NCBI RefSeq assembly: GCF_025949695.1
Contig: NZ_JAPDFL010000001.1
Span: 2,793,501-2,857,500, forward strand
Direction of reading: 5' to 3'
Length of the DNA: 64,000 bases
Origin: Pararhodobacter zhoushanensis
GTDB taxonomy: Bacteria; Pseudomonadota; Alphaproteobacteria; Rhodobacterales; Rhodobacteraceae
In this document: positions 11,708-58,098 of the stretch, one piece after another
How the letters are laid out: each line of letters starts with the position of its first letter
How positions within the stretch are numbered: position 1 is the first letter of the stretch
Position numbers and translations under genes: made by a program
Notes under the pieces: generated by a model
What the model saw: the letters and a program-made list of their open reading frames with translations, nothing else
What the model was told of the DNA's origin: nothing
The model's database searches: none

Positions 11708-11714
11708 CCCATTC

Positions 11715-11728
11715 TTCGGGCACTTTGA
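11715..11728 (+). repeat. Left copy of a 14-base direct repeat around the IS remnants
   Basis: TTCGGGCACTTTGA recurs exactly at 13401-13414. The first copy begins 8 bases after the tRNA. The two copies bracket all transposase debris. An inverted copy of its first nine bases (GTGCCCGAA) lies near 11774. Confidence 0.6.
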
Positions 11729-11789
11729 TGTCCCTCAGGACTGGGAACTGAGGCGCGCCTTGCACCGCGCCGGGTGTGCCCGAAACTGA

Positions 11790-42534: not shown

Positions 42535-43578
42535 TTATTCCGCTGCCACACCGATCAACCGGCGCAGCCCCACCAGTGCGCCCACCGCGATGGCGGCCAG
42601 CGTTACCGGGGCGGACCACGCCAGCGTCGAAAAGGCGCTGACGCCCTGCCCGACCGAGCAGCCCATGGCGATCACCCCGCCGATGCCCATCAGGGCCGCG
42701 CCGCCGACCTGACGGCCCAGTTCGCGCGGGTCTTCGCAGGCTTCCCAGCGGAACATCCCGCGCCAGAGCGATCCGGCCAAGGCACCGGCCATGACGCCCA
42801 GCACCGAACCGACAGAAAAGTTGATGCCCCCGGCGGTCGAGGTCATCAGAAACACGATGGTCCGGCCGACGGGCGCGGTAAAGGACAGCCCCTCAACCCC
42901 GATCTCGCCGAAGCTTTCATGGTTGACCCAACTGGTGCCCCAGAGCGCAAACACCACCGCCAGCCCCGCCACGACGCCCCACGCGATCTCTCCCGGTGCG
43001 CGGCGCAGCGGCCCATAGGCCAGCGCCCAGACCAGAAACCCAGCCGCGATGATCAGCGCGGTAACCAGCGGTGGCAGACCGATCAGCGCCTCTAGCGTGG
43101 CCGAGATGCCTTGCGGCTCGCGGGCTGGTTCCTGCGCGAAAAGCGCCACGCGCAGGGGTGCCAACGGGCCGGACAGCGTGATGAAGCCAAAAACGCCCAT
43201 CACCACGACCACCACCAGCGAGCGCAGATCACCGCCGCCAAACCGCACCAGCGCGCCAAAGCCGCAGTTCCCGGCCAACGCCATGCCATAGCCAAAGATC
43301 AACCCGCCCGCGACCGAGGCCAGCGGGTTCCAGACGATCTGATGGTAAAACGTCTCGCTCAGGGTGATCTGCCCCAGCGCGACGCCAACAAAGGTGCCAA
43401 CAATCGCCACCGCCAGCACAATACCCCACAGCCGCAACCGCCGCTGGTCACCGCCATACGCGGCAGATTCCAGCGCCCCAAGCGTGCAGAAATTGCCCAA
43501 CCGGGCCGACAGCCCCAGCACAACGCCCGCGATCAGGCCAACCAGCGCGGCCATCACACCATAGGAAATGCCATCCAT
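42535..43578 (-). CDS. YeeE/YedE (SoxT-like) sulfur-compound transporter, first copy
   Basis: The 347-residue inner-membrane protein has about ten hydrophobic helices and the three cysteine-centred motifs of the YeeE/TsuA thiosulfate channels: GNFCTLGALESAAYGGD near the start, AGNCGFGALVRFGGGDLRS in the middle and AMGCSVGQGVSAFS near the end. It lies on the minus strand next to a metallo-beta-lactamase protein gene and 1.2 kb before a second copy. Location near the sox genes supports import of thiosulfate or another reduced sulfur compound. Which of the two copies equals soxT of Paracoccus cannot be decided here. Confidence 0.86.
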   Translation of the reverse strand: MDGISYGVMAALVGLIAGVVLGLSARLGNFCTLGALESAAYGGDQRRLRLWGIVLAVAIVGTFVGVALGQITLSETFYHQIVWNPLASVAGGLIFGYGMALAGNCGFGALVRFGGGDLRSLVVVVVMGVFGFITLSGPLAPLRVALFAQEPAREPQGISATLEALIGLPPLVTALIIAAGFLVWALAYGPLRRAPGEIAWGVVAGLAVVFALWGTSWVNHESFGEIGVEGLSFTAPVGRTIVFLMTSTAGGINFSVGSVLGVMAGALAGSLWRGMFRWEACEDPRELGRQVGGAALMGIGGVIAMGCSVGQGVSAFSTLAWSAPVTLAAIAVGALVGLRRLIGVAAE

Positions 43579-43812
43579 CTTTGCCTCTGGTTTGCTGAAA
43601 ATTCAGGCGGTGGGTAAACTCGGCCCAGACTCCGGTTTTGCCCTGCAAATTGCAAGCGCGGATTGGCCGGCGATCAAAGCGTCGCGGCGGTGGGGTCTTT
43701 GCTTTCTTCGCAAGACCGCCTAAATATGGGGAAGGTCACGGCGTGTTCTCCCACCGCTCGGGCCTGCCACACAGACCCGCCGCTCGGCGGGCGACAGACC
43801 ATGGGAGCCATC

Positions 43813-44725
43813 ATGACCATCACCAGACGAGCCTTCACCCTTGGCGCAACCGCTTTGACCGCGGGCGGCCTGCTGACACGCCGCGCCCGCGCGCAGACTA
43901 CGGCCGAATTCGGTGCGATGCGGGTCGAGATGTTGTCCGACGGCAACCTGTCCCTGCCGCGCGATTTCACGCTGGGCACCATGCCGCAGCCCGACGCGGA
44001 CGCGATCCTTGCGCGCTATGGCCTTGGCGACGGCCCGCTGACCCCGCCCTGCAATGTGACGCTGCTGCGCCATGAAGACCGGGTTATCCTGTTCGATATC
44101 GGCGCTGGCCCTGATTTCCAGCCGAGCGCCGGGATGTTGCCCGATACGCTCGACGCTGCCGGGATCTCGCCGGACGAGATCACGCATCTGGTCATCACCC
44201 ACGGTCACCCCGATCACATCTGGGGTCTGCTGGATGATTTTGATGAGCCCTACCTGCCCAACGCGCAGATCCTGATGGGCCGGGGCGAGTTTGACTACTG
44301 GATGGATGACAATACCGTCTCGACCATCGATTCCGGACGCCAGACCTTTGCTGTGGGCGCGCAGCGGCGCTTGGCGACGGTGGCGGATCTGGTGACCTTC
44401 TTCGAGGACGGGCAAGAGATCCTGCCGGGCATCGCCGCCCGCGCCACCTATGGCCACACGCCGGGTCACATGGCGTTCGAACTGCGCGACGGATCGGACA
44501 GCCTGATGGTCGTCGGCGATCTCGCTGGGTAACCATCATCTGGCGTTCGAGCGGCCGGAATGGGAGTCGGGCTCGGATCAGGATGCGCCGGCGGCGGCGG
44601 CAACGCGGGTGCTGCTGCTGGATCAACTGGCGCACGCGCAGATGCTGATCGCCGGGTTCCATTTGCCCGGTGGTCTGGGCCGGGTCGAGCGTGCCGACAG
44701 CGGTTATCGCTTCGTTCCCGCCTGA
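43813..44725 (+). pseudogene. Metallo-beta-lactamase-fold hydrolase (SoxH-like position), frame-broken near its 3' end
   Basis: The gene encodes an exported MBL-fold protein. A twin-arginine-type signal (TITRRAFTLGATALTAGG, cleavage near residue 28) is followed by the metal motif THGHPDHIW with His130, His132, Asp134 and His135, and later GHTPGHMAFE. The frame hits a stop at 44530-44532 soon after VVGDL. In the next frame the protein continues without a gap: GNHHLAFERPEWESGSD to GYRFVPA, stop at 44725. One extra base in GATCTCGC (44518-44525) accounts for it. In the unbroken form it would be about 303 residues. The role in sulfur oxidation is inferred from its place between two SoxT-like genes. 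Confidence 0.82.
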
Positions 44726-44728
44726 GGT

Positions 44729-45805
44729 TCAGGCGAGTAGCGGGGCCCTGCGCTGATCGACCAACAGGTCGGTCAGCATCGCGCCCACCCACATGCACAG
44801 CAGCGCCAGCCACGCTGTTGCCGCAAAGATCGAGCCGCCCGTGACGCCCGCGCCAATCGCGCAGCCCCCGGCCAGCATCCCGCCGAACCCCATCAGGACA
44901 GCGCCCGCCATCGAGCGGCGCATGCTGCGTTCGCCCTCGAACCCCTGAAACCGGAACTCTCTGGCAAAGAGCGACGCCAGAAACGCCCCAAGGAACACGC
45001 CGGGCACCAGACCGATGTCGAAATTGAGCACAGGCGCGGAGTCGAGAAAGAACATCAACGTGTTGGCCGAGGGTCCGGTAAAGGTGGCCGAGGTCACATT
45101 GACCGGCTCCCACGCCGTTTGCGCCAGCGTCCATGTGCTCACCCAGCCCACCGCCACGGCAAATCCGACGCCCGAGGCAAAGACCAGCACCCGCGCGCCA
45201 ATCTGCGCGCGCAGCGCCACGATCAGCGCCACCGCCGCCAGTCCCAGCCCAAGCAGCAGCCCGGTGACCTCCGGCAATCCCACCATCGTCAGCAGGTTCA
45301 GGTTGCGCCCGTTCGGCGTGACCCACAGCGCCGCCAGCCCGTTGCGCAGTGGGGCCAGCCAGCCGTGCAGGCTCATCTGCGCGACCACCGCAAAGATCAG
45401 CCCGGACACCACGCTGCGCAGGTTGCCCGTCGCCGCCAGCACCAAGAGCCGCCCCGAACAGCCGCGCGCCATGACCATGCCGACACCGAACATCAGCCCG
45501 CCGATGATCGCGCCGGACCACGAGCCCGCCACCGACATCATCCGCGCGTCGCTGGCATCGAACAGGCCAAGCCGTTGCGCCAGTTGCACCCAGACCACGG
45601 CGGTCGAGAAGGTCAGCAACCACACCGCCACCCTGCCGCCGATGATCCCGCGCGCGAATTCCACCGTCGCGGCGCGCAGGCAAAAGGACGAGCGTTGCGC
45701 GGCGACGCCAAAGATCGTGCCGGTCAGAAGACCGAGCAACGCTCCGGCGACGGGCTCGCCCATGGCTTCCACGAATACGGTGAACAGATCCAGCAGCCAG
45801 TCCAT
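44729..45805 (-). CDS. soxT: YeeE/YedE (SoxT-like) sulfur-compound transporter, second copy
   Basis: The 358-residue membrane protein has the same plan as the first copy: SSFCLRAATVEFARG (about 36-50), ARGCSGRLLVLAATGNLRS and AGGCAIGAGVTGGS, with about ten helices. In Paracoccus a gene of this family, soxT, sits upstream of soxR, and this gene occupies that position; I use the symbol on that basis. The start ATG at 45805 has GAGGAGGG upstream. A near-palindrome that may be a SoxR operator lies 33-52 bases before the start. Thiosulfate uptake is the likely job. Confidence 0.85.
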   Translation of the reverse strand: MDWLLDLFTVFVEAMGEPVAGALLGLLTGTIFGVAAQRSSFCLRAATVEFARGIIGGRVAVWLLTFSTAVVWVQLAQRLGLFDASDARMMSVAGSWSGAIIGGLMFGVGMVMARGCSGRLLVLAATGNLRSVVSGLIFAVVAQMSLHGWLAPLRNGLAALWVTPNGRNLNLLTMVGLPEVTGLLLGLGLAAVALIVALRAQIGARVLVFASGVGFAVAVGWVSTWTLAQTAWEPVNVTSATFTGPSANTLMFFLDSAPVLNFDIGLVPGVFLGAFLASLFAREFRFQGFEGERSMRRSMAGAVLMGFGGMLAGGCAIGAGVTGGSIFAATAWLALLCMWVGAMLTDLLVDQRRAPLLA

Positions 45806-45837
45806 CGACAGCCCTCCTCAGCCTATTGCACAGGGCA

Positions 45838-45857
45838 ATATGCGAGAAATCGAATAT
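45838..45857. promoter_or_regulatory. Candidate SoxR operator upstream of soxT
   Basis: ATATGCGAGAAATCGAATAT is a near-perfect palindrome (ATAT-G/T-CGA arms, GAAA centre) in GC-rich surroundings. It shares 14 of 20 positions with the site at 48440-48459 upstream of soxX. Assignment to SoxR is inferred. Confidence 0.45.
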
Positions 45858-45885
45858 GGACCTTGATTCAGATCACGCTTTCACC

Positions 45886-46287
45886 TTAGCGGCGAAACAG
45901 CCGGTGGATCATTTCGACCATCTCGCGCACGCGGTTATCGGCCAGCGAATAGATGATCTGGTTACCGTCACGCCGCGTGGTGACCAGCTTTTCATGCCGC
46001 AGCCGGGCAAGCTGCTGGCTGACCGCAGCCTGCCGCGACATGATCAGCTGCTCAAGTTCGGTCACCGTGTGGTCACGCTCGCACAGATGATAGAGCATCA
46101 TCAGGCGGCCATCATGGCCCAGAGCCTTGAGGAAATCGGCAGCGGCGCGGGCCTCGATTGCCAGCGCTTCGGGCGGGATTGACGATGCATCGCAGCTGCG
46201 GTCGCGCATCACCGGCGCGCGCGTCACTGCCCGCCGCTCCGGGTTCGGATCGACTGACCGGTCGGCGTTTTGCCCGTCTGGCGCCAT
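45886..46287 (-). CDS. soxR: ArsR-family regulator SoxR
   Basis: In Paracoccus SoxR is an ArsR-type repressor of the sox genes that responds to reduced sulfur. The 133-residue protein has a winged-helix core (ALGHDGRLMMLYHLCERDHTVTELEQLI, recognition helix SRQAAVSQQLARLRHE, wing TTRRDGNQIIYSL). Cys69 in YHLCER matches one sensing Cys of the related SqrR/BigR proteins. The second, expected near the C-terminus, is not there (tail EMIHRLFRR), though Cys32 lies in the N-terminal extension. The gene is transcribed away from soxV, next to soxS. An internal ATG at 46209 is an alternative start. Confidence 0.87.
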   Translation of the reverse strand: MAPDGQNADRSVDPNPERRAVTRAPVMRDRSCDASSIPPEALAIEARAAADFLKALGHDGRLMMLYHLCERDHTVTELEQLIMSRQAAVSQQLARLRHEKLVTTRRDGNQIIYSLADNRVREMVEMIHRLFRR

Positions 46288-46420
46288 GCGCTCTCCACCC
46301 TGCTTCGCGCTCCGACGAAACAGCCCCTGCTTCTTTCACAGAACCCTACCACGCGGCGCTGACCGAATCGAGCACCCGTGCGGGTTTTGCTTCAAGGGTG
46401 TGACACCACGTCCTGCGCGC

Positions 46421-46813
46421 TTAGCCGGTGGTGTCTGCCAGCGCGTTGTCGATCATCTGATTGAGATACGGCCAGAAGAAATCCTGCCCGGGAAAGCCGA
46501 TCAGCCGGTCAACCTCGGTCCCTGAGGCATCGAGCAGGATGAAAGTGGGCGTCACGAAGGGACGCGAGGTCAGGGTGACCCCCTCAGGCAGTGGACCGCG
46601 CAGATCGGCGCGGATCAGGGGCGCGAACTGCGCTTCGGGCGACGCCTCATAGGCCGGGGCGACATCGCGGTTGAAGGCGGCGCAGATGTAGCAGCCGACC
46701 TGCTCGATCATCAGCAGGCGCAGCTCTTGCGCCGAAGCCGCGCTGATCGACAGCAGTGACAGGGCCAGCGCGCCAATGCCGCCAAAAACCGCCGTGCGAA
46801 ATCCAAGTGCCAT
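46421..46813 (-). CDS. soxS: Periplasmic thioredoxin SoxS
   Basis: SoxS is a periplasmic thiol reductase that reactivates SoxYZ. The 130-residue protein has a signal peptide (cleavage near ASA-QE, residue 28) and a thioredoxin-like domain with an active-site Cys41-x2-Cys44 (GCYICAAF) and cis-Pro region RPFVTPTFILLD. It is divergent from soxV and followed after 133 bases by soxR, as in Paracoccus. Electrons are expected from SoxV in the membrane. Confidence 0.9.
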   Translation of the reverse strand: MALGFRTAVFGGIGALALSLLSISAASAQELRLLMIEQVGCYICAAFNRDVAPAYEASPEAQFAPLIRADLRGPLPEGVTLTSRPFVTPTFILLDASGTEVDRLIGFPGQDFFWPYLNQMIDNALADTTG

Positions 46814-46911
46814 CGTCGTTTTCCCTTGCGGCCTGTCAGGCCCGATCTGTCGTCAGCTTACGCAGGATTCAACCCCAAGGGTACGAAAACCTGATTGACG
46901 ACAACTGAGAT

Positions 46912-46931
46912 ACATATGAAGATTGTAATGT
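46912..46931. promoter_or_regulatory. Candidate SoxR operator in the divergent soxS-soxV gap
   Basis: ACATATGAAGATTGTAATGT has imperfect inverted ends (ACATAT/TAATGT) and sits in an AT-rich island in the 186 bases between the divergent genes. TGAAGATTG plus ATGT recurs upstream of soxB (50864-50878). SoxR binding to the soxS-soxV gap is known in Paracoccus; the exact site here is inferred. Confidence 0.45.
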
Positions 46932-46999
46932 TTTCGATCCCCGCAAACAAGACCCGCCTTCGGGTCGGTTTGACGGGTACGCCAGGGAGGGCGTCATCT

Positions 47000-47737
47000 A
47001 TGCTGGATATCACGTTCGGCGGGGCCGCGTTGGCGGGCATCCTGTCGTTCCTGTCGCCGTGCATCCTGCCGATGGTGCCGTTTTACCTGTGCTACATGGC
47101 CGGTCTGTCGATGGCCGAACTGCGCTCGGATCACGGGCTTGCACCGGGTGCACAGCGGCGGCTGGTGCTGTCGTCCATCGCGTTCTCGTTTGGCGTGACC
47201 ACGATCTTCATGTTGCTGGGCCTTGGGGCCACGGCGCTGGGGCAAGCGTTCATCCAGTGGCAGGACACGCTGCGCTGGATCGCGGCCGCCGTCCTGCTGG
47301 TGTTCGGCCTGCATTTTCTGGGGGTCATCAAGATCTCCTTGCTCTACCGCCAGGCGCGGATCGAAAACGCCGGGTCACCCAAATCGGTCCTCGGCAGCTA
47401 TGTGATGGGTCTGGCCTTTGGCTTTGGCTGGACGCCCTGCGTCGGCCCGGCGCTGGCGGCGATCCTGATGATCGCATCGGGCATGGGCGATCTGACGCGC
47501 GGCACGGCGCTGCTGGCGGTCTACGGGCTGGCGATGACCCTGCCCTTCGTGATCGCCGCGCTCTTTGCCCGGCCGTTCCTGAACTGGGTCGCCCGGCACC
47601 GCCACAAGCTGCAATACGTCGAGAAAGTCATGGGCGCGATGCTGATCGTCTTTGCGGTCCTGATCGCGACCAATACGCTGAACTATATTGCCCAATGGAT
47701 GATCGAGACCATGCCCTGGCTGGCCACGATCGGTTGA
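47000..47737 (+). CDS. soxV: CcdA/DsbD-type thiol-electron transporter SoxV
   Basis: SoxV moves reducing equivalents from cytoplasmic thioredoxin across the inner membrane to SoxS and SoxW. The ATG at 47000 follows GGGAGGG and gives 245 residues with six helices; the longer open frame reads into the operator region. The two redox cysteines lie in helix starts: Cys21 in LSPCILPMVPFY and Cys147 in GWTPCVGPAL, the CcdA hallmark. It is the first gene of soxVW. Confidence 0.93.
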   Translation: MLDITFGGAALAGILSFLSPCILPMVPFYLCYMAGLSMAELRSDHGLAPGAQRRLVLSSIAFSFGVTTIFMLLGLGATALGQAFIQWQDTLRWIAAAVLLVFGLHFLGVIKISLLYRQARIENAGSPKSVLGSYVMGLAFGFGWTPCVGPALAAILMIASGMGDLTRGTALLAVYGLAMTLPFVIAALFARPFLNWVARHRHKLQYVEKVMGAMLIVFAVLIATNTLNYIAQWMIETMPWLATIG

Positions 47738-47752
47738 GATCTGGAGGTTCCG

Positions 47753-48343
47753 ATGATTGCCACCCGCCGTACGCTGCTGACCGGCCTTGCCCTGACGCTG
47801 GCCGCCCCTGCCCTGATCCGCCCCGCTCGCGCTGACGAAGCGGTGCCGCCTTTGGGCGAGGACGGGCTGCACAAGCCCGACTGGATCGTCGAAACCTTCC
47901 GCGACATGCGCGACGACCTTGACGAAGCGCGCGCCAATGGCAAGCGGCTGCTGATCATGGTCGAGCAGCGCGGCTGCATCTATTGCACCCGGATGCACGA
48001 GCATGTCTTTACCGATGACGCCATCGCGCGCACCCTGCGTGAGGATTACATGGTCGTGCAGATGAACCTGTTCGGCGATATTCCCGTCACCGATTTCGAC
48101 GGCGAGGAACTGGGCGAACGCGACATGATGCGCCGCTGGGGCGTGGTGTTCACGCCGACCATGCTGTTCATGCCCGAAGAGGTGCCCGAGTCGGGCACGG
48201 CGGCGCAGAATGCGGTGATGATGATGCCGGGCGCGTTCGAACGCGGCACGACCGGGCTGATGCTGCGCTGGGTTCTTGAGCGTGGGTATGAGGGCGACGA
48301 GCATTTCCAGCACTACGTCGCCCGGATGCTGAATGAAGGTTGA
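47753..48343 (+). CDS. soxW: Periplasmic thioredoxin-like protein SoxW
   Basis: The 196-residue protein has a signal peptide with a twin-Arg start (ATRRTLLTGLALTLAAPAL, cleavage near ARA-DE) and a thioredoxin fold with Cys75-x2-Cys78 (GCIYC) and cis-Pro region VVFTPTMLFM. In Paracoccus SoxW is a substrate of SoxV and helps reduce periplasmic disulfides. It starts 16 bases after soxV with GGAGG upstream; soxX follows after 210 bases with its own promoter region. Confidence 0.92.
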   Translation: MIATRRTLLTGLALTLAAPALIRPARADEAVPPLGEDGLHKPDWIVETFRDMRDDLDEARANGKRLLIMVEQRGCIYCTRMHEHVFTDDAIARTLREDYMVVQMNLFGDIPVTDFDGEELGERDMMRRWGVVFTPTMLFMPEEVPESGTAAQNAVMMMPGAFERGTTGLMLRWVLERGYEGDEHFQHYVARMLNEG

Positions 48344-48439
48344 CCTTGACCTCGGACGTGGCAAAAGCCATTGTTTTACGAAGGTTTGCGACGACAAGCT
48401 CACAGCCCCAGGAAACGGGGACCCGTGCGGTCGCAAGCT

Positions 48440-48459
48440 ATATGCAAATAAATGAATTT
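48440..48459. promoter_or_regulatory. Candidate SoxR operator upstream of soxX
   Basis: ATATGCAAATAAATGAATTT lies in the soxW-soxX gap, 95-115 bases before the soxX start, and is the AT-richest stretch there. It aligns with the soxT site at 14 of 20 positions. The gap is a known SoxR target in Paracoccus; position here is inferred. Confidence 0.45.
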
Positions 48460-48553
48460 TCTATTGCTCACCCGGCCCCGCATCGACTATCATGCCTTTG
48501 TGATGCGTTTGGGAGAGCGCAAACCCATCTGCTGAATGTCAGGGAGGACATCC

Positions 48554-49036
48554 ATGAAGCTGAAAGCTGTGACCGGCCTTATCGCCGCCGGAATCGCGCT
48601 GGCTGGCACCGCCATCGCCGAAGTCGCGCCCGGCGACATCACCTGGGTTGACGACGTGATGATCCCGACCTCGCTGACCGGCATGCCGGGCAGCGTCGAC
48701 GCAGGTGTCTCGGTTGTGTCGAGCCGTTCGGCGGGCAATTGTGTGGCCTGCCACGGGATCTCGGCCCTGCCCGACGCCGCGTTTCAGGGCAATGTCGGCC
48801 CGTCGCTGGACGGTGTCGGCAGCCGCTGGACTGAAGCGGAGCTGCGCGGCATTCTGGTGGATGCCAAGCACATGTTCCCCGACACGCGCATGCCGTCTTT
48901 CTACCGCGTCGATGGCTTTACCCGGCCGGGTGACGCCTATACCGGGCGCGCCGCTGACCCCGCCACCTTCGGTCCGCTGCTGAGCGCAGTGCAGATCGAA
49001 GACACCATCGCCTATCTCATGACGCTGACCGACTGA
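48554..49036 (+). CDS. soxX: Sulfur-oxidising protein SoxX, monohaem cytochrome c
   Basis: SoxX accepts electrons when SoxA couples thiosulfate to SoxY. The 160-residue product has a signal peptide (cleavage near AIA-EV, residue 22) and one haem site, Cys63-x2-Cys66-His67 in NCVACHGIS; the axial Met is likely in DTRMPSFYRVDG. The ATG at 48554 has GGGAGG upstream. It opens the soxXYZA transcription unit. Confidence 0.95.
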   Translation: MKLKAVTGLIAAGIALAGTAIAEVAPGDITWVDDVMIPTSLTGMPGSVDAGVSVVSSRSAGNCVACHGISALPDAAFQGNVGPSLDGVGSRWTEAELRGILVDAKHMFPDTRMPSFYRVDGFTRPGDAYTGRAADPATFGPLLSAVQIEDTIAYLMTLTD

Positions 49037-49073
49037 TCCGGTCCGCCCCGTCCCCTTGATAAGGAGCTTCCCC

Positions 49074-49490
49074 ATGCTGACAAGACGCGACACCCTCGCG
49101 ATCGGTCTGGGCGCCTCGGCCGTGGCAATGCTGCCCGTAGCCGCCGCCGCGACCCCGGTTGACGACGCGATTGCTGCCTATACCGGCGGCGCTGCCATTG
49201 CCGAGGGCGGTGTGACCATCACCGCGCCCGAGATCGCTGAGAACGGCAACACCGTGCCGATCACGATCGAAGCCCCCGGCGCGGTCGAGATCATGCTGAT
49301 CGCCACCGGCAACCCGACGCCCAACGTGGGCAAGTTCACCTTTGGCCCCGGTTCTGGCGCACCGATGATCGCCACCCGCATGCGTCTGGGCCGGACCCAG
49401 GATGTGCTGGCGATTGCCAAGATGGAAGACGGCAGCTTTGCCTCGACCGCGGTCGAAGTGAAAGTCACCATCGGCGGCTGTGGCGGCTGA
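49074..49490 (+). CDS. soxY: Sulfur carrier protein SoxY
   Basis: SoxY carries the sulfur intermediates on a swinging C-terminal arm. The 138-residue protein has a twin-arginine signal (LTRRDTLAIGLGASAVAML), an Ig-like body and ends in GGCGG with the substrate Cys136. As a Tat substrate it probably hitchhikes SoxZ, which has no signal. The ATG at 49074 follows AAGGAG; 37 bases separate it from soxX. Confidence 0.96.
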   Translation: MLTRRDTLAIGLGASAVAMLPVAAAATPVDDAIAAYTGGAAIAEGGVTITAPEIAENGNTVPITIEAPGAVEIMLIATGNPTPNVGKFTFGPGSGAPMIATRMRLGRTQDVLAIAKMEDGSFASTAVEVKVTIGGCGG

Positions 49491-49535
49491 TCCCGTCAGG
49501 GTTTCGCCGTTCCATCCAGTTTCAGGAGTTTCATC

Positions 49536-49862
49536 ATGACCGAAGTCAGACCCCGCATCCGCCTTCCCCGCAGCGCCTCGGCCGGCGAGTCGATCGTCGT
49601 CAAGACGCTGATCAACCACGACATGGAATCAGGCCAGCGCCGCAATTCGGCCGGCGAGACGATTCCGCGCCAGATCATCAACCGTTTCACCTGTGAATTC
49701 AACGGTGTGATGGTTCTGGACGCCGCCCTTGAACCCGCCATTTCGGCAAACCCGTATATGGAATTCGAGGCCGTCGTGCCCGAATCCGGCGAATTCGTCT
49801 TCACCTGGTACGACGACAATGGCGAAGTTTATACCGCCACTGAAACGTTCGAAGTCAGCTGA
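49536..49862 (+). CDS. soxZ: SoxY partner protein SoxZ
   Basis: SoxZ is the 108-residue, all-beta partner of SoxY. It lacks a signal peptide, as expected for co-export with SoxY by Tat. Recognisable stretches are RPRIRLPRSASAGESIVVKTLINHDMESGQ and the C-terminal FTWYDDNGEVYTATE. CAGGAG lies upstream of the ATG. It is 45 bases after soxY. Confidence 0.95.
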   Translation: MTEVRPRIRLPRSASAGESIVVKTLINHDMESGQRRNSAGETIPRQIINRFTCEFNGVMVLDAALEPAISANPYMEFEAVVPESGEFVFTWYDDNGEVYTATETFEVS

Positions 49863-49897
49863 GCATACGGCGCAACAGAAGTCTGGGAGGAGACACT

Positions 49898-50764
49898 ATG
49901 CAGCACCTGAAGCCTGCGAAAACGCTGGCGCTGGCCTCGGCCTGCGTCGCGGCGCTGTGGTCCGGCGCGGCCTTGGCCGACCCTGATCTGTCGGCTGACC
50001 TGATGATCGATGGCGAATTGCACATCGTGACCCGGGCCCCGGCGGACGACATCGTTCCGAACCTGTCCGAGCGGTATTCGGGCTGGCTGTTCCGCGATCC
50101 TGCCACCCGCGACATGCAGGCCGACGACTTCGAGAACCCGGCGATGCTGGCCGTCGATCAGGGCGCCGAACTGTGGGAAACCGCAGAGGGCACCGCTGGC
50201 CAGTCGTGCCAGGATTGCCACGGCGATGCCGAGGAAAGCATGGCCGGCGTTCGTGCCCGGATGCCACACGTCAACGCTGACGGTGAGCTGTGGTCGATGG
50301 AGAACTACGTCAACAACTGTCGCACCGAACGCATGGGCGCCGAAGAATGGCGTTGGAGCGGTGGCGAGATGACCTCGATGACCGCGTTCCTGTCGATGCA
50401 GTCGCGCGGCATGCCGGTGGCGGTGCAGATCGACGGTCCCGCCGCCCCCTATTGGGAGCAGGGCCGCGATATGTACTACACGCGCTATGGCCAGTTGGAG
50501 CTGTCGTGCTCCAGCTGCCATGAGGAAAGCACGGGCATGATGATCCGCGCCGACCACCTCAGCCAGGGCCAGATCAGCGGCTTCCCGACCTACCGGTTGA
50601 AGAATGCCGGCATCGTGTCGATCCACAACCGCTTCCGCGGCTGTATCCGCGACACGCGCGCCGAAACCTTCGCCGAAGGGTCGGAAGAGTTCCGCGCGCT
50701 GGAACTCTATGTCGCCTCGCGCGGCATGGGTCTGGACGTCGAAGGCGTCTCGGTTCGTCCGTAA
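49898..50764 (+). CDS. soxA: L-cysteine S-thiosulfotransferase subunit SoxA, dihaem cytochrome c
   Basis: SoxA, with SoxX, joins thiosulfate to the SoxY cysteine in the periplasm. The 288-residue protein has a signal peptide (cleavage near ALA-DP, residue 27) and two haem sites, Cys104-Cys107-His108 (CQDCH) and Cys204-Cys207-His208 (CSSCH), so it is the dihaem type. The active-site Cys249 lies in FRGCIRDTRAE and would ligate the catalytic haem as a persulfide; Cys141 likely serves the other haem. A hairpin eight bases downstream separates it from soxB. Confidence 0.96.
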   Translation: MQHLKPAKTLALASACVAALWSGAALADPDLSADLMIDGELHIVTRAPADDIVPNLSERYSGWLFRDPATRDMQADDFENPAMLAVDQGAELWETAEGTAGQSCQDCHGDAEESMAGVRARMPHVNADGELWSMENYVNNCRTERMGAEEWRWSGGEMTSMTAFLSMQSRGMPVAVQIDGPAAPYWEQGRDMYYTRYGQLELSCSSCHEESTGMMIRADHLSQGQISGFPTYRLKNAGIVSIHNRFRGCIRDTRAETFAEGSEEFRALELYVASRGMGLDVEGVSVRP

Positions 50765-50771
50765 GCGTTTT

Positions 50772-50797
50772 GGGGGCACGGTCGTCCGTGCCCCCTT
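50772..50797 (+). terminator. Terminator- or attenuator-like hairpin between soxA and soxB
   Basis: GGGGGCACGG pairs with CCGTGCCCCC around a TCGT loop, only eight bases after soxA. The following TTCCCC is a weak U tract, so partial termination or 3'-end protection is likelier than a full stop. Confidence 0.6.
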
Positions 50798-50858
50798 CCC
50801 CTACTCCGTTCGGATCATTCGGTGCTGTGCCGAAATTTTTTGTCCGAACAACATTCAT

Positions 50859-50878
50859 TCCTTTGAAGATTGGCATGT
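50859..50878. promoter_or_regulatory. Possible regulatory site upstream of soxB
   Basis: TCCTTTGAAGATTGGCATGT shares TGAAGATTG and ATGT with the soxS-soxV candidate site. It lies 60-80 bases before the soxB start in an AT-richer gap that follows the soxA hairpin. A SoxR site or part of a soxB promoter is inferred. Confidence 0.3.
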
Positions 50879-50937
50879 AACGCCTCCCCGTCGTGCCCGC
50901 TTCAACTGACCGAGTTTCGGCTCCAAGGAGACTGATC

Positions 50938-52635
50938 ATGATTTCCCGGCGCGAATTCCTGCAGGCTTCGGTGGCTGCATCTGCCCTTTACGGTGTGTCC
51001 GGCTTTGGCAACTGGTCCAGGCTGGCGGCACAACAGGTGCTGACGCAAGACGATCTGCTGCGCTTTGAGAGCTTCGGCAACGTGTCGCTGATCCACGTCA
51101 CCGATATTCACGCCCAGCTCAAGCCGATCTGGTTCCGCGAGCCCGAATTCAACTTTGGCGTCGGTGATGTCCGCGGCGTGCCTCCTCACGTCGTAGGGCG
51201 TGAGTTCATCGACATGTTCAACCTGACGCCCGGCTCAGCCGATGCCTATGCGCTGACCTATCCCGATTTTGTCGCGCTGGGTCAGGCTTACGGCAAGATG
51301 GGCGGCATGGACCGTGTGGCGACCGTGATCAAGGCGATCCGCGCCGAACGGCCCGAGGCGATCCTTCTGGACGGCGGCGATACGTGGCACGGTTCGATGT
51401 CGTCGTATCTGTCGCGCGGTCAGGACATGGTCAACGTGATGAACGCGCTGGGCGTCGAGGCGATGACCTCGCACTGGGAATGGACGCTGGGCACCGACCG
51501 GGTGCTGGAACTGGTCGATCAGTTGAATTTCCCCTTCCTTGGCCAGAACATCTTTGACGCCGAGTGGAACGAGCCGTCCGAAGATTTCCCCTCCTACACC
51601 TGGTTCGAGCGGGGCGGCGCCAAGGTCGCGGTGATCGGTCAGGCCTTCCCCTATACGCCCATCGCCAACCCCGGCTGGATGTTCCCCGAGTTCAGCTTCG
51701 GCATCCGCGACGAGCGCATGCAGGAGATGGTCAACGAGGTGAAAGCCCAAGGGGCCGATCTGGTGGTCGTACTGTCGCACAACGGCTTTGATGTGGACCG
51801 CAAGATGGCCAGCCGCGTGCAGGGCATCGACGTGATCCTGACCGGCCATACCCATGACGCCCTGCCCGAGCCTGTGCTGGTCGGCACCACGCTGCTGATC
51901 GCCTCGGGCAGCCATGGCAAGTTCGTCACCCGTCTGGATCTGGATGTGCGTGACGGTCAGCTGATGGGTTTCCGTCACAAGCTGATCCCGATCTTTGCGG
52001 ACGTCATCACGCCGGACGCCGAGATGGCCGCCGTCATCGACGCCGAGCGCGCGCCCTATGCCGCGCAGATGGAAGAGGTGATCGGCCACACCGACAGCCT
52101 GCTTTACCGCCGGGGCAACTTTGCGGGCACGTGGGACAACCTGATCTGCGACGCCGTGATGTCCGAGCGGGACACTGAAATCGCCCTGTCGCCCGGCGTG
52201 CGCTGGGGGGCCAGCCTGATGCCCGGCGACGCGATCACCCGCGAGGATATCCACGCCGTCACCACGATGACCTATGGTCAGGTCTACCGCTCGGAAATGA
52301 CCGGCGAGACGATCCACGCCATTCTCGAGGATGTCGCCGACAACCTGTTCAACACCGACCCCTACTATCAGCAGGGCGGCGACATGGTGCGTCTGGGCGG
52401 CCTTGGCTATGCCATCGACATCACCAAACCCATCGGCGAGCGCATCACCGGATTGACGCTGTTGCGCACCGGCGAGGCGCTGGACCCCGCGCAGACCTAT
52501 ACGGTCGGCGGCTGGGCCTCGGTCAACGAGGGCACCGAGGGGCCGATGATCTGGGATGTCGTCGAGGAACACATTCGCAAACTGGGCCGCGTGAGCGCCG
52601 AGCCGAACGGCTCGGTCATCGTGTCCGGCATTTGA
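50938..52635 (+). CDS. soxB: Thiosulfohydrolase SoxB
   Basis: SoxB hydrolyses sulfate from the SoxY-bound sulfonate using two Mn ions. The 565-residue protein begins with a twin-arginine signal (ISRREFLQASVAASAL). Its 5'-nucleotidase-like domain shows DIHAQ (Asp56, His58), DGGDTWHGS, LSHNGFD and GHTHDAL, and a C-terminal substrate-binding domain completes it. The ATG at 50938 follows AAGGAG. It opens a soxBCD unit after the soxA hairpin, 22 bases ahead of soxC. Confidence 0.96.
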   Translation: MISRREFLQASVAASALYGVSGFGNWSRLAAQQVLTQDDLLRFESFGNVSLIHVTDIHAQLKPIWFREPEFNFGVGDVRGVPPHVVGREFIDMFNLTPGSADAYALTYPDFVALGQAYGKMGGMDRVATVIKAIRAERPEAILLDGGDTWHGSMSSYLSRGQDMVNVMNALGVEAMTSHWEWTLGTDRVLELVDQLNFPFLGQNIFDAEWNEPSEDFPSYTWFERGGAKVAVIGQAFPYTPIANPGWMFPEFSFGIRDERMQEMVNEVKAQGADLVVVLSHNGFDVDRKMASRVQGIDVILTGHTHDALPEPVLVGTTLLIASGSHGKFVTRLDLDVRDGQLMGFRHKLIPIFADVITPDAEMAAVIDAERAPYAAQMEEVIGHTDSLLYRRGNFAGTWDNLICDAVMSERDTEIALSPGVRWGASLMPGDAITREDIHAVTTMTYGQVYRSEMTGETIHAILEDVADNLFNTDPYYQQGGDMVRLGGLGYAIDITKPIGERITGLTLLRTGEALDPAQTYTVGGWASVNEGTEGPMIWDVVEEHIRKLGRVSAEPNGSVIVSGI

Positions 52636-52657
52636 GACTATTGAGGGAGCACGCATC

Positions 52658-53946
52658 ATGACCGATCTGTCTGATGACGACACGCACAAGCCCGCCGGCG
52701 TCAGCCGCCGTGGCTTTCTGCGCACCGCCAGCCTTGCTGCCGGGGGGCCGCTTTGGGCGGCGCTGCCAGCGCGCAACAAGCCGACCCGCTGATCACGCAA
52801 GTGCAGGACTGGGCGTCGATGACCGGCGAAGGCGTCGATGCCACGCCCTACGGCATGCCGATCCGCTTTGAGGATGACGTGGTGCGCCGCACGGTGTCGT
52901 GGCTGACCGCCGATCCGATCAGCTCGATCAACTTCACGCCGATTCACGCGCTGGATGGCACCATCACCCCGCAGGGCTGCGCGTTCGAGCGCCACCATTC
53001 CGGCGCGATCGAGCTGTCGAAAGACGATTACCGCCTGATGATCACCGGGCTGGTCGACCGCCCGCTGGTGTTCACCTGGGAAGACCTCCAACGCTTCCCG
53101 CGCGAAAACCACGTGTATTTCTGCGAATGCGCGGCCAACTCAGGCATGGAATGGGCCGGTGCGCAGCTCAATGGCGCGCAGTTCACCCATGGCATGATCC
53201 ACAACATGGAATATTCCGGCATCCCACTGCGCTTGCTGCTGGAAGAGGCCGGGGTCCAGGCTGAGGGCCGTTGGGTGTTTGTCGAGGGGGCCGATGCCTC
53301 GTCGAACGGGCGCTCGATCCCCTTGGAAAAAGCGATGGATGACGTGCTGGTCGCCTTCAGCGCCAATGGCGAGGCGCTGCGCAAGGAGCACGGCTATCCG
53401 GTGCGGCTGGTGGTGCCGGGCTGGGAAGGCAACATGTGGGTCAAGTGGGTGCGCCGGATCGGCGTGAACCACTCGGCGGTCGAGGCGCGCGAGGAGACCT
53501 CGAAATACACCGACCTGATGCCTGACGGGCGCGCGCGCAAATGGACGTGGGAGATGGACACGAAATCTGTCATCACCTCGCCCTCGCCGCAAAAGCCGAT
53601 CACCCACGGCTCTGGCCCCTTGGTGATCACCGGGCTGGCGTGGTCGGGCCGTGGCATGATTGACCGCGTGGACGTGTCGCTGGACGGCGGCGTCAACTGG
53701 CAGCCCGCGCGTCTGGGCACGCAGGGCGGGCGCTATGCCCTGTCGCGCTTTTATCTGGAAATCGACTGGGACGGATCGCCGATGCTGCTGCAATCGCGCG
53801 CGGTGGATGAGCACGGCTATGTTCAGCCGACCAAGGACGCGCTGCGCGAAATCCGGGGCCTGAATTCGGTCTACCACAATAACGGTATCCAGACCTGGGC
53901 CGTCTACGAGAATGGAGCGGTGGAAAATGTCGAAGTCAGTTCTTAA
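52658..53946 (+). CDS. soxC: Sulfane dehydrogenase molybdenum subunit SoxC, frame broken in the signal peptide
   Basis: SoxC, with cytochrome SoxD, removes six electrons from the sulfane sulfur left on SoxY. The first frame begins at the ATG at 52658 (MTDLSDDDTHK), reaches a Tat motif SRRGFLRTASLAA, then loses frame at a run of six G (52742-52747). One more G would restore AAGGAALGGAASAQQ and join the long downstream frame, which runs to 53946. That part has the sulfite-oxidase fold with the Mo-ligand Cys in YFCECAANSG and a C-terminal dimer domain (RVDVSLDGGVNWQPA). With the break, a product could only start inside and would lack the export signal. Confidence 0.88.
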
Positions 53947-55018
53947 GATCCTCGCGTCCACCGCGTTGGCCGGTCTCATCGCCGCTCCGGCGCTGGCGCA
54001 GACGCTTGGTCTGGGCCGCGCGGCGCTGCCTGAGGAGATTGCCGCCTGGGATGTCGCGGTCGAGCCTGACGGCACCGGCCTGCCCGTCGGCTCGGGCGAC
54101 GTGTTCACCGGTGAAGACCTGTGGGTCGAAAACTGCGCCAGCTGCCATGGTGACTTTGGCGAGGGTGCCGGGGCCTATCCGGTGATCGCAGGCGGCGAAG
54201 ACACGCTGACCAACCGCCGCCCGGTCAAGACAGTGGGCAGCTACTGGCCGTATCTGTCGACGGTGTTCGACTACGTCCACCGCTCGATGCCCTTTGGCAA
54301 TGCGCAGATCCTGTCGGCCGACGACACCTACGCCATCGTCGCCTATATCCTGTACTCGAACGCCATCGTTGAGGATGACTTCACCCTGTCGAACGAGAAT
54401 TTCGCCGACGTCGTGATGCCCAACGCCGACGGCTTCTATGTCGATGACCGGGTTGAAACCGAGTTCCCGATTTTCGTGCACGACGTCTGCATGAGCGACT
54501 GCACCGCGCCGGTGCACATCACCCGCCGCGCCACCGATCTACAATCGACGCCCGAGGGCGCGGTGACGGTCTTCGCACCGGATCGGCCCAGCGGCGTCAT
54601 GGACGGTGCCGGTGCGCCTGAGGGTGGCGAGGGTGCCGCCCCGGCTGAGGCGCCGGTACAGGAAGCCGCAGCCGAGCCTGCAATGCCCGCGCTCGACCCC
54701 GAATTGGTCGCTGCCGGTGAAGGTCTGTGGCGTCAGTGCCGCAGCTGTCACCAGATCGGCGAGGGCGCGCGCAATGGCACGGGTCCGTTGCTGACGGATG
54801 TGCTGGGTCGCCATGCCGGTGGGGTTGAAGGCTTCCGCTATTCCAACCCGATGACTCAGGCCGGCGAAGAGGGGCTGATCTGGACGCCCGAGACGCTGGA
54901 CGCCTTCCTTGCCGATCCGCGCGGTTACATGCGCGGCACGCGGATGTCGTTCCGGGGGCTGCGCGACGAGGCTGATCGTCAGGCGATGATCGCCTATCTG
55001 CAAAGCCAGTCGCAGTAA
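53927..55018 (+). CDS. soxD: SoxD, dihaem cytochrome c of sulfane dehydrogenase
   Basis: SoxD takes electrons from SoxC. The ATG at 53927 overlaps the soxC end by 20 bases and gives a 363-residue protein with a signal peptide (cleavage near ALA-QT). Domain 1 has Cys70-Cys73-His74 (NCASCH). After an Ala/Pro/Glu-rich linker (about 235-262), domain 2 has Cys271-Cys274-His275 (QCRSCH) with a later RGTRMSFRGL holding the Met ligand. This is the dihaem Paracoccus type. A terminator follows, so soxE, F, G and H are absent from this locus. Confidence 0.94.
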   Translation: MSKSVLKILASTALAGLIAAPALAQTLGLGRAALPEEIAAWDVAVEPDGTGLPVGSGDVFTGEDLWVENCASCHGDFGEGAGAYPVIAGGEDTLTNRRPVKTVGSYWPYLSTVFDYVHRSMPFGNAQILSADDTYAIVAYILYSNAIVEDDFTLSNENFADVVMPNADGFYVDDRVETEFPIFVHDVCMSDCTAPVHITRRATDLQSTPEGAVTVFAPDRPSGVMDGAGAPEGGEGAAPAEAPVQEAAAEPAMPALDPELVAAGEGLWRQCRSCHQIGEGARNGTGPLLTDVLGRHAGGVEGFRYSNPMTQAGEEGLIWTPETLDAFLADPRGYMRGTRMSFRGLRDEADRQAMIAYLQSQSQ

Positions 55019-55073: not shown

Positions 55074-56579
55074 TCACCCCTCGCCCCGGTCGCTGAGCAG
55101 CCGGTCGATGGGCGCGAAATCGTCGGTGAAGGTGACGGGCGTGCGCCCATCGAGGATCGCCTGCAGAGAGCTGGCGGCGATCCGCACCGCCGCCCCGTCC
55201 GGCCCGCCGATCTGCGAGCGTGGTGACGGCGCGTCCCCGGCGACCAGCACGAACACCCGGCGGTTCTCGGATGCGTCATGCGCGGGATCGGCCCAGACCT
55301 CGACCGAGGGCCAGACCGCACGCGCGGTGGTGACGATCGAGGCCAGCACGTCCAACCGGTCCATGTGGTCGATGACGTTCATCAGGTAGACGCCGCCGGG
55401 GTTCAGGCGCGCATCGACCAGCGCGAAGAATTCCCGCGTGATCAGGTGTTGCGGCACGGCGATGTCGCCGAAAGCGTCGCCGATGATCACGTCATAGGCC
55501 GCAGGCTCCCACGCCAGCGTGCGGCGCGCGTCGGCATGGATGATCCGGTCCTCGCCCGGGTCGTACCAGAAATAGTCGATGGCGGCACGGGTCACGGCCG
55601 GGTCCACCTCGGCCACCGTCACCGCCACCGGTGTGCCCCGCGCATGCCACGCGCGCGGCACGGTATAGGTGCCGCCGCCGATCAGGAACGCCGACCAGCC
55701 CTCGCGGCCTTCCATCCGCAGGCGCGGCAGGCCCTCCAGCATCACGCCATGCGGCGTCAGCATCGCGGTGGGGTCCAGCCCGTCCGCCGCGCCATGCACC
55801 AGATGGTCCAGCACCATCAGCCGAACCGGCGCCTGCGTGGTGCCCTCGTCAATCACGCGGATGCAGAAATAGTCACTCTCGACCGTGCAGGGGTTCGGCA
55901 GAGATAACCCGCCCAGCACCAGCCCGAACGGCACCAGCGCAGCCGCCGCGCCCGCCACGATCCCGCGCAGCCCGCTGGCCGAGGCCAGCGACATCAGCCC
56001 CAGCACCGCATAAACCGCCGCCACCACGGCCAGCGTGCCCACCGAGCCCAGCCACGAGATGAACACGAACCCCGCCGCCAGCGTGCCCAGGATCGCGCCC
56101 CATGCCCCGGCCGCGAACATCGCGCCCAGGGCCCGGCCCTTGCGCTCGGGATGACGCAGCACGGCGATCATCGACAGAATGGGTGCGGGGATACCGGCAA
56201 AGAAGGACGGCAGGAAGAACACCAGCGAAGTCAGCACCACGATGGATGCCACCGGGCTTTGCAGCGCGGGGATCACCGTCCCGGCGACACCGCGCAGGAT
56301 GAACACCGCCGCCGCCGTGCTGGCCGCCGCGCCCAGCATCGCCCAGCCGTTCCCCTTGAGCGCAGCCTCGGGCGACCATTCCGCCATGCGCCCGCCCGCC
56401 CAATGCCCCACCGAAAAGCCGGCCAGCACCACGGCAATCACCGAGGTCCACGTATAAAGCGACATCCCCACATAGGGAGCCAGCATCCGTCCCGCCACAA
56501 TTTCGACAATCAGGCTTGCCGCGGCGACCGTTGCCTGAATGGTCACCAACCCCCAAAGTCTTTGCATTCCTCGCCTCAT
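55074..56579 (-). CDS. Membrane-fused spermidine-synthase-like methyltransferase-fold protein
   Basis: The 501-residue protein has six or seven membrane helices in residues 1-220 (IVEIVAGRMLAPYVGMSLYTWTSVIAVVLAG cut across helices 1-2 is characteristic). A Rossmann-fold domain follows, resembling spermidine synthase: FLIGGGTYTVPRAW, VTVAEVDPAVTRAA, then HADARRTL and YDVIIGDAFGD. The acidic residue pattern fits binding of decarboxylated SAM or SAM, but this fused family has no firmly known reaction. It is convergent with soxD; a role in sulfur oxidation is not implied. Confidence 0.86.
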   Translation of the reverse strand: MRRGMQRLWGLVTIQATVAAASLIVEIVAGRMLAPYVGMSLYTWTSVIAVVLAGFSVGHWAGGRMAEWSPEAALKGNGWAMLGAAASTAAAVFILRGVAGTVIPALQSPVASIVVLTSLVFFLPSFFAGIPAPILSMIAVLRHPERKGRALGAMFAAGAWGAILGTLAAGFVFISWLGSVGTLAVVAAVYAVLGLMSLASASGLRGIVAGAAAALVPFGLVLGGLSLPNPCTVESDYFCIRVIDEGTTQAPVRLMVLDHLVHGAADGLDPTAMLTPHGVMLEGLPRLRMEGREGWSAFLIGGGTYTVPRAWHARGTPVAVTVAEVDPAVTRAAIDYFWYDPGEDRIIHADARRTLAWEPAAYDVIIGDAFGDIAVPQHLITREFFALVDARLNPGGVYLMNVIDHMDRLDVLASIVTTARAVWPSVEVWADPAHDASENRRVFVLVAGDAPSPRSQIGGPDGAAVRIAASSLQAILDGRTPVTFTDDFAPIDRLLSDRGEG

Positions 56580-56826
56580 TCCTCAGTTTTATTTCCGATA
56601 GCACGACAACACGCGCGCATTTCCAGAATCTAACGCAATTCCGGCAACGAAACTGCCATTATTGAACACGATAAGGAAACGACCCTTGCACGCTATTGAA
56701 ACGGTAACATTTTGTTTTTCTTTGATTTCTTTCAGCGATTGTGGCATGTTTTAGGCAGATTTGGTCATAATTGAGTTCGACAACCCGCCTTCGATCCGGG
56801 TCAGTCTCGACGCAAAAGGGGATAGC

Positions 56827-57579
56827 ATGTTTTTCAGATTCGGTGGAACGCTCGGCAATCTTGGGTCCGCTTGCAAAGGTGTGATCAACAACGTGGTAAT
56901 GAAAAGTCATTTCGGACGGCACGACGACAAGGACGATCACCACGGATGGGGTCGTGGTCATGGCCGCGACAAGGATGACCACGACAAGGATCATCACGGG
57001 AACCATGGCGGCCACCACGGCGGCAAGGATTGCGACGACGACAATGATGACGATTGCGGCGGCGCTGCTGACGGCGTTGACATCACCATCCCGGCGAATG
57101 CCCATTCCGCCATCTTGGTGATCGAGAACAACGACGACAACGATGACGACTACGACGATTACGTCCGCGTCTACGCGGACGATCTCGAAGATCCCAGCAA
57201 TGTGGACGACTATGTCGCTGCCGCCGAAGAAGAATACGCAGCCCGCGGCGACGATCTGGACTCGTGCGATGAGGTGCTCAAGGTTGTGGTCGAGGACGCC
57301 GATGGCAAGGTCATCAAGGTGCTCTACAAGGACGGCGACGGCAACTACACCGACAAAGACCCGCGTGCGGAAAACGACAGCGATGACGCGGGCGACGACG
57401 GTGACAACAGTGACGACGACGACAATAACGATGATGACGACGACAAGGACTGCGGTGGCATCGGCAAGTTCCTGAAGGTCATCCACGGCCGTCACGACCG
57501 CGACGACGACCGCAATGATCACAACGACGATGACGACGACCATGGTCACGGCGGCCACCACTACCAGATGGCCTGCTAA
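56827..57579 (+). CDS. Extremely Asp/His-rich protein of unknown function
   Basis: I do not recognise a family. The 250-residue product (ATG at 56827, AAAAGGGG upstream) has a short hydrophobic/basic N-terminus with no clear signal peptide. A His/Asp/Gly-rich segment follows (31-68: GRHDDKDDHHGWGRGHGRDK and on), then a plainer folded-looking domain (80-175) with acidic insertions and a DGDGN turn, an Asp-rich tract (183-208) and a closing His/Asp segment (221-246). Six Cys are spaced through it (16, 69, 77, 147, 209, 250). The composition suggests metal or cation binding. The 247 bases upstream are AT-rich and likely hold its promoter; a terminator follows. Confidence 0.72.
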   Translation: MFFRFGGTLGNLGSACKGVINNVVMKSHFGRHDDKDDHHGWGRGHGRDKDDHDKDHHGNHGGHHGGKDCDDDNDDDCGGAADGVDITIPANAHSAILVIENNDDNDDDYDDYVRVYADDLEDPSNVDDYVAAAEEEYAARGDDLDSCDEVLKVVVEDADGKVIKVLYKDGDGNYTDKDPRAENDSDDAGDDGDNSDDDDNNDDDDDKDCGGIGKFLKVIHGRHDRDDDRNDHNDDDDDHGHGGHHYQMAC

Positions 57580-57607
57580 GCCTCAGGCGTATCGCAGCGA
57601 TCAACAA

Positions 57608-57633
57608 ACGGCGGGCCTCAGGCCCGCCGTTTT
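57608..57633 (+). terminator. Bidirectional terminator between the Asp-rich gene and lrp
   Basis: ACGGCGGGCC and GGCCCGCCGT form a perfect ten-base stem around TCA, followed by TTT on the plus strand and preceded by an A-rich stretch that gives a weak U tract on the minus strand. Both flanking genes converge on it. Confidence 0.88.
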
Positions 57634-57639
57634 GCTGTC

Positions 57640-58098
57640 TCAGGGTCGGGGCAAGCTGCGCTGCACCTTGACCGGACGCAGCACCAGATGGGTCTGCACC
57701 TGCGCGATGCCCTCTTGCCGGAAGAGGCTGCGCTCCATGAAGTCGTTGAACGCCTGCAGATCGCGGCACTGCACGCGCAGGTGGTAGTCCATCGCCCCCG
57801 TTGTGGCGTAGCAATCCAGCACCTCATCGTGGCGCATCACCTCTTGGGTGAAGCGTTCGACCACCGCGCCCGAATGCCGGGTCAGGGTAATGTGGATGAT
57901 GGCGTGAAAGCCCAAACCGGCCTTGGCCGCGTCTACCTCGGCCCGGTAGGCACGAATGATCCCGGCCTCCTCCAACGCCTTGACCCGACGCCAGCACGAG
58001 CTCGCCGACAGCCCCACCCGCTCGGCCAGTTCCTGATTGGACAGGCGCGCGTCGGCCTGCAGCAGATCCAGCAGTTTCCAGTCGATCTCTTCCAGCAT
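57640..58098 (-). CDS. Lrp/AsnC-family transcriptional regulator
   Basis: The 152-residue protein has an N-terminal winged helix (LEEIDWKLLDLLQADARLSNQELAERVGLSASSCWRRVKALEEAG cut, residues 2-45) and a C-terminal RAM ligand-binding domain (FHAIIHITL, VLDCYATTGAMDYHLRV). The ATG at 58098 is preferred over the longer frame because MLEEIDWKLLDLL is the normal start. It is divergent from the indolepyruvate oxidoreductase gene, a common pairing in which the regulator senses an aromatic or branched amino acid and controls that gene. Confidence 0.92.
   Translation of the reverse strand: MLEEIDWKLLDLLQADARLSNQELAERVGLSASSCWRRVKALEEAGIIRAYRAEVDAAKAGLGFHAIIHITLTRHSGAVVERFTQEVMRHDEVLDCYATTGAMDYHLRVQCRDLQAFNDFMERSLFRQEGIAQVQTHLVLRPVKVQRSLPRP

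What the first reader, a model, noticed from the sequence alone, without database searches (positions are those of the whole stretch)
56827..57579. Extreme Asp/His-rich protein with mirrored metal-binding-like ends
His/Asp/Gly clusters at 31-68 and 221-246 flank a folded-looking centre and a poly-acidic tract, with six spaced Cys. It has no recognised family or signal peptide, its own AT-rich leader and a perfect terminator. It may store or buffer metal or calcium, or template a mineral.
Basis: partly seen in the sequence, partly recalled or inferred. Interest (0 to 1): 0.7.

Follow-up and report, generated by a model that had tools for sequence, protein, structure and literature searches.

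The report
Genus-restricted Asp/His-armed orphan protein
A real, conserved bacterial gene makes a protein with a small folded centre and two floppy, aspartate- and histidine-rich arms that may soak up metal ions; relatives in the same genus can keep the centre but carry quite different, collagen-like arms.

Summary
The ORF at 56827-57579 (+) is a real gene, not a low-complexity artefact. Its orthologue in Pararhodobacter zhoushanensis has the same neighbours and both are under purifying selection, arms included (dN/dS 0.126). The protein has a folded core of about 100 residues (beta-beta-alpha-beta-beta) between two arms predicted disordered; 18 of its 19 His lie in the arms. The core matches no Pfam or NCBIfam family, no PDB sequence and no solved fold convincingly. 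Relatives were found only in Pararhodobacter (one of them a MAG) and in five proteins of a large collection. In D/H-type relatives the arms keep their D/H/G composition while their sequence drifts to 31-49% identity in the three distant ones compared. P. oceanensis keeps the core but has a long Gly-X-Y repeat as N-arm. Most likely a cytoplasmic, disordered buffer of Zn/Ni/Co/Cu (0.4). Main rival: a hydrophilin-like stress protein; all eight full-length members meet its two published criteria. Flanking genes are adjacent without it in three related genomes.

The parts
56621..56826 (+). AT-rich leader, similar in P. zhoushanensis; promoter not identified
   Evidence: GC 0.44 vs 0.65 for the window; both leaders printed; no sigma-70-like site found
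56816..56821 (+). Shine-Dalgarno-like AAGGGG before the ATG
   Evidence: sequence
56827..57579 (+). 250-aa protein-coding gene
   Evidence: dN/dS 0.126 against the P. zhoushanensis orthologue
56827..56904 (+). N-terminal segment, residues 1-26, less polar, partly kept in D/H-type relatives (MFxxGGxxxFGxAC-like; not in P0003's Cys)
   Evidence: sequences
56908..57030 (+). N-arm, residues 28-68, rich in His/Asp/Gly, predicted disordered
57031..57057 (+). Cys pair C69/C77, kept in the D/H-type relatives
57064..57378 (+). conserved folded core, residues 80-184 (strand-strand-helix-strand-strand)
57373..57450 (+). acidic tract, residues 183-208, 16 Asp of 26
57451..57471 (+). CGG[IL]xKF motif, residues 209-215, kept in the D/H-type relatives
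   Evidence: sequences
57484..57564 (+). C-arm, residues 220-246, Asp/His/Gly-rich, predicted disordered
57606..57632 (.). perfect hairpin between this gene and the convergent asnC-like gene; terminator candidate
   Evidence: not listed by the terminator scan

Best explanation
A stand-alone, genus-restricted, probably cytoplasmic protein in which a small folded core holds two intrinsically disordered, strongly acidic arms. Asp, His and Cys side chains of the arms act as a low-specificity, high-capacity buffer for divalent transition metals (Zn, Ni, Co, Cu), taking up or releasing metal as supply changes. Shown by computation: real gene under selection, conserved core, arms conserved in composition, predicted order and disorder. 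Inferred only: location, metal binding, buffering.
For: His and Asp enriched far beyond other window genes, His almost only in the arms. Six D/H relatives (P0002-P0006 and P. zhoushanensis) keep Asp 19-21% / 23-39%, His 6-17% / 10-17% and Gly 18-29% / 11-24% in N-arm / C-arm; in P0003, P0004 and P0006 the arms are only 31-49% identical to the window's, the core 71-73%. Arms are under purifying selection: 22 synonymous changes on 59 sites against 12 nonsynonymous on 289. A Cys pair and CGG motif are kept in the D/H type. Analogies: the disordered His-rich loop of V. cholerae ZrgA adds zinc sites (PMC9820375, passages); Helicobacter Hpn stores nickel (PMC4671568, passages).
Against: No metal-related gene was recognised directly beside it; no metal operator was identified (none was searched for systematically). 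Two relatives have the core without D/H-rich arms. Three genomes with the same two flanking genes lack it. Codons for Asp, His, Gly and Asn are close to each other, so slippage and drift could favour this composition.
Confidence: 0.4

Rival explanations
1. Hydrophilin-like protectant: the arms are water-binding disordered segments whose exact residues matter little; the core tethers or oligomerises them, and the protein protects other macromolecules under salt or drying stress.
For: All eight full-length members examined, both arm types, have Gly over 6% and hydrophilicity index over 1 (1.03-1.31), the criteria quoted in PMC7448490 (passages); 0 of 42 other window genes meet both. It covers both branches of the family.
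Against: Does not explain His enrichment, the kept Cys residues or the conserved core; stress induction is untested.
Confidence: 0.28
2. Exported matrix, adhesive or mineral-interacting protein: core anchors, arms form a calcium-binding or collagen-like polymer outside the cell.
For: Polymer-like arms of two chemistries, including up to 60 successive Gly-X-Y triplets in P. oceanensis; strong acidity.
Against: No hydrophobic signal-like N-terminus by hydropathy (no formal predictor); no exporter recognised among the direct neighbours; the Gly-X-Y repeat has no Pro.
Confidence: 0.17
3. Low-complexity by-product ORF without function.
For: GAY/GGY/CAY-rich DNA can expand by slippage; restricted distribution.
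Against: dN/dS 0.126 with dS 0.256, as in four neighbouring genes (0.23-0.29); conserved core at 46-49% identity in the distant branch; similar leader and hairpin in P. zhoushanensis.
Confidence: 0.03

Closest known systems
Hpn / Hpn-2 of gastric Helicobacter (His-rich nickel-storage proteins)
   Same: Lineage-restricted, compositionally extreme, His stretches plus Cys; low-complexity part differs between paralogues (Hpn-2 has a Gln-rich part)
   Different: Hpn has 60 aa with 28 His and no Asp dominance is reported in the passages seen; here 250 aa, 7.6% His, 26% Asp, with a folded core
Disordered His/Asp-rich loops of zinc solute-binding proteins (ZnuA, ZrgA)
   Same: Flexible stretches rich in His, Asp, Glu that add mostly weak zinc sites (ZrgA)
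   Different: Those are loops in periplasmic solute-binding proteins; no such domain matched here
Hydrophilins / LEA-like proteins
   Same: Gly over 6% and hydrophilicity index over 1 (criteria), long predicted disorder
   Different: Conserved folded core, His and Cys content, stress induction untested
Bacterial collagen-like (Gly-X-Y) proteins
   Same: Only the P. oceanensis relative: Gly at every third position for 60 triplets
   Different: No Pro in the repeat; the window protein has no such repeat

Membership tests
Hydrophilins | Gly content over 6% and hydrophilicity index over 1 | tested here: met
   12.4% Gly, index 1.29; 8 of 8 full-length members meet both; 0 of 42 other window genes
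Hydrophilins | Induced by or protective against osmotic or drying stress | not testable with these tools
   needs expression or phenotype data
Hpn-type His-rich nickel proteins | Small protein, about half His (28 of 60 in Hpn) | tested here: not met
   250 aa, 19 His; Hpn figures
Hpn-type His-rich nickel proteins | Binds and stores nickel | not testable with these tools
   needs purified protein and mutants
Zinc solute-binding proteins (ZnuA/ZrgA) | Recognisable solute-binding domain | tested here: not met
   no Pfam or NCBIfam match for the window protein at E up to 10; two of eight family members had Peripla_BP_2 at E 0.11 or worse, not significant
Known folds of the PDB | Convincing structural match to the core | tested here: inconclusive
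EF-hand calcium-binding loops | Conserved Asp ligands of the loop | tested here: not met
   first Asp of KDGDGNYTDKD is not kept in relatives; only this one candidate loop was looked at

The most novel reading that the evidence does not exclude
The core is a new small domain that serves as a common base for interchangeable low-complexity polymers: in one branch a metal-binding Asp/His/Gly brush, in the other a Pro-free collagen-like Gly-X-Y rod. This would be a natural bacterial modular material in which arm chemistry evolves independently of the anchor.
Probability: 0.25. Interest if true: 0.65.

Novelty: new variant of a known kind. Interest (0 to 1): 0.42.

Why it matters
It documents an unnamed domain and a clear case in which the composition rather than the sequence of disordered arms is kept, next to a sister branch in which the same core carries chemically different arms. 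If the metal reading is right, it adds an Asp/His metal buffer to marine Rhodobacteraceae; if the scaffold reading is right, it is a natural modular protein material.

Tried and rejected
Sigma-54 promoter: a TGGCA-N7-GGCA site at 56742-56757, 85 bases before the ATG, has a counterpart in P. zhoushanensis, and the genome has an rpoN-type gene. But matches of this quality (3 mismatches to the consensus, which I recalled) are not above chance in the window (111 found, 131 expected). Not claimed.

Distant relatives across the order: at E up to 0.1 the core profile hit 59 of 390 genomes, own genome included; the best other E was 0.007. I translated the nine best other loci (L022-L030): eight hold the same protein of about 270 aa, which I recognise from memory as CysQ-like, and one (L022) another protein. 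Taken as a spurious resemblance. At E up to 0.001 only the own genome remains: 1 of 394 (family), 1 of 390 (order), 1 of 385 (class). These samples overlap, and the family, order and class samples held few genus members.

Viral or plasmid origin: no relative in viral contigs; no match at E 0.001 or better among viral structures; best PHROG match E 0.011, unknown function, three of eight members, not pursued; no plasmid match. Weak Pfam matches of family members, best E 0.069, four families, not pursued. PDB sequences: one at E 0.93. A third protein search with the P. oceanensis core region found nothing at E 0.001 among 150 candidates, not even the family's own members, so that search was insensitive and absence from the collection is not shown.

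RNA element: two Rfam matches, both below their gathering scores. Mobile-element ends: the repeats found in 56500-57720 lie inside the coding sequence, plus the hairpin. EF-hand reading of KDGDGNYTDKD: first Asp not kept. Link to the neighbouring sox genes: the two flanking genes are adjacent without this gene in three related genomes, so the neighbourhood says little.

No solved fold is convincingly matched; families missing from those lists are not excluded, and a new fold is not shown.

Full report
What is there. The ORF at 56827-57579 (+) encodes 250 aa, 26.4% Asp, 12.4% Gly, 7.6% His, net charge -50. Against 42 other likely genes of the window (my own selection) both Asp (maximum elsewhere 8.2%) and His (3.7%) are far outside the range. 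18 of 19 His lie in two end segments, residues 28-64 and 220-246.

It is a real gene. The window lies in a 4.65-Mb genome; the closest named relative found is Pararhodobacter zhoushanensis, which has the orthologue with the same neighbours on both sides. Between the two, dS is 0.256 for this gene and 0.23-0.29 for four neighbours; dN/dS is 0.126 against 0.00-0.06 for those neighbours, so it is constrained but evolves faster than they do. The arms (residues 28-79 and 185-250) show 22 synonymous changes on 59 sites against 12 nonsynonymous on 289 (p 3e-11). The long antisense ORF at 56659-57561 I read as a by-product of GAY codons; it was not tested separately.

Architecture. A model of residues 67-210 has 70 of 144 residues at pLDDT 90 or more and the order strand-strand-helix-strand-strand, with a less certain loop between the first two strands. 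In the full-length model residues 1-74 and 184-250 are below pLDDT 50. The models rest on 8 and 9 sequences. Beside the core sit a Cys pair (C69, C77), an acidic tract and a CGG[IL]xKF motif, present in all D/H-type relatives seen. C147 in the core is kept in the D/H type only; C16 and C250 vary.

Relatives. Two searches of the large protein collection gave five proteins, P0002-P0006 (3 hits, 5, three shared), without names or organisms, all of the D/H type. Only the candidates sharing most words were scored, so more may exist. The one genome-contig scan gave three loci: P. zhoushanensis (D/H type), P. oceanensis, and a Rhodobacteraceae MAG. Their cores are 46-49% identical to the window's, but their arms are rich in Gly, Ser, Thr and Lys. 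In P. oceanensis Gly falls on every third position for 60 triplets in a row, a collagen-like period without Pro; its first residues still hold a short His/Asp/Asn/Gly stretch. The MAG copy is cut by the contig start and holds a run of N. In the genus 3 of 18 genomes held carry the core, the own genome included. Wider samples found only the own genome at E up to 0.001: 1 of 394 (family), 1 of 390 (order), 1 of 385 (class).

Composition is kept, sequence is not. For P0003, P0004 and P0006 identity to the window protein is 71-73% in the core, 31-37% in the N-arm, 32-49% in the C-arm; P. zhoushanensis is 96% in the core, 88% and 92% in the arms. P0002 is close to P. zhoushanensis, P0005 to P0006 and P0004, so the independent points are few. 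Over the six D/H relatives Asp stays at 19-21% (N-arm) and 23-39% (C-arm), His at 6-17% and 10-17%, Gly at 18-29% and 11-24%. I read this as selection on chemistry rather than on order.

Locus. The asnC-like neighbour was found at E 1e-60 or better in 12 of 18 genus genomes. In three of them besides the own genome (G010, G017, G016; L011-L013) the two flanking genes are adjacent, about 66-110 bases apart, instead of about 1.06 kb here and in P. zhoushanensis, and no copy of the core was found elsewhere in them. The other eight loci (L014-L021) show no left neighbour in the stretch held, two of which end shortly after asnC, so they say nothing. The gene was either gained in the window / P. zhoushanensis branch or lost in the others. 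In P. oceanensis and the MAG it lies in other surroundings.

How it probably works. Disordered His/Asp-rich stretches are known metal-ligand tracts: in V. cholerae ZrgA such a loop supplies four or five mostly low-affinity zinc sites and is not essential (PMC9820375, passages), and Helicobacter Hpn is a lineage-restricted His-rich protein that stores nickel and protects against overload (PMC4671568, passages). By analogy I propose a cytoplasmic low-specificity transition-metal buffer (0.4). Against it: no metal gene recognised beside it, no metal operator identified, and a branch of the family that does without D/H-rich arms. The hydrophilin reading (0.28) covers both branches: all eight full-length proteins exceed 6% Gly and index 1 and 0 of 42 other window genes do (criteria from PMC7448490, passages); it does not explain His and Cys. 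An exported matrix or mineral role (0.17) has no positive support beyond polymer-like arms and acidity.

Literature. Search listings seen: Pararhodobacter (20 of 46 papers listed), His/Asp-rich metal storage, CooJ/Hpn, ZnuA loops, polyglycine II, Asp-rich biomineralization, hydrophilins. None of the titles or abstract openings listed there describes this family. Read whole: PMC6856285; passages only: PMC9820375, PMC4671568, PMC7448490. The held library lacks most subscription journals, so this does not show that the family is unpublished.

Verdict. A genuine, unnamed, apparently genus-restricted protein family with a conserved core and exchangeable low-complexity arms. New as a family, of a familiar general kind; its function is inferred only.

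Noticed in passing
L006:5017-6390: P. oceanensis relative with the same core but a 60-triplet Gly-X-Y (GTK GSG GSK GTG) arm, collagen-like period without Pro.
   Followed up: partly
42535-55018: Sulfur-oxidation (sox-like) gene cluster, named from memory; only the last gene was scanned (cytochrome c domains).
   Followed up: no
25223-28227: Two ABC-3 family permeases and an ABC ATPase (metal importer type); I saw no solute-binding protein directly beside them.
   Followed up: partly
56659-57561: 300-aa antisense ORF rich in Val/Ile, mirrored in P. zhoushanensis; probably a by-product of GAY codons on the other strand.
   Followed up: partly
56742-56757: Sigma-54-like site in the leader with a counterpart in P. 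zhoushanensis; match quality is not above chance in the window.
   Followed up: yes
55074-56579: Left neighbour of 501 aa looks like a membrane/spermidine-synthase-like fusion (from memory) but has no Pfam match at E 1e-5.
   Followed up: no
11620-13073: ORFs that look like fragments of an IS3-type transposase (from memory).
   Followed up: no
19554-20279: Proteasome-family peptidase (PF00227, E 1e-7) beside transglutaminase-like and related genes (from memory).
   Followed up: no
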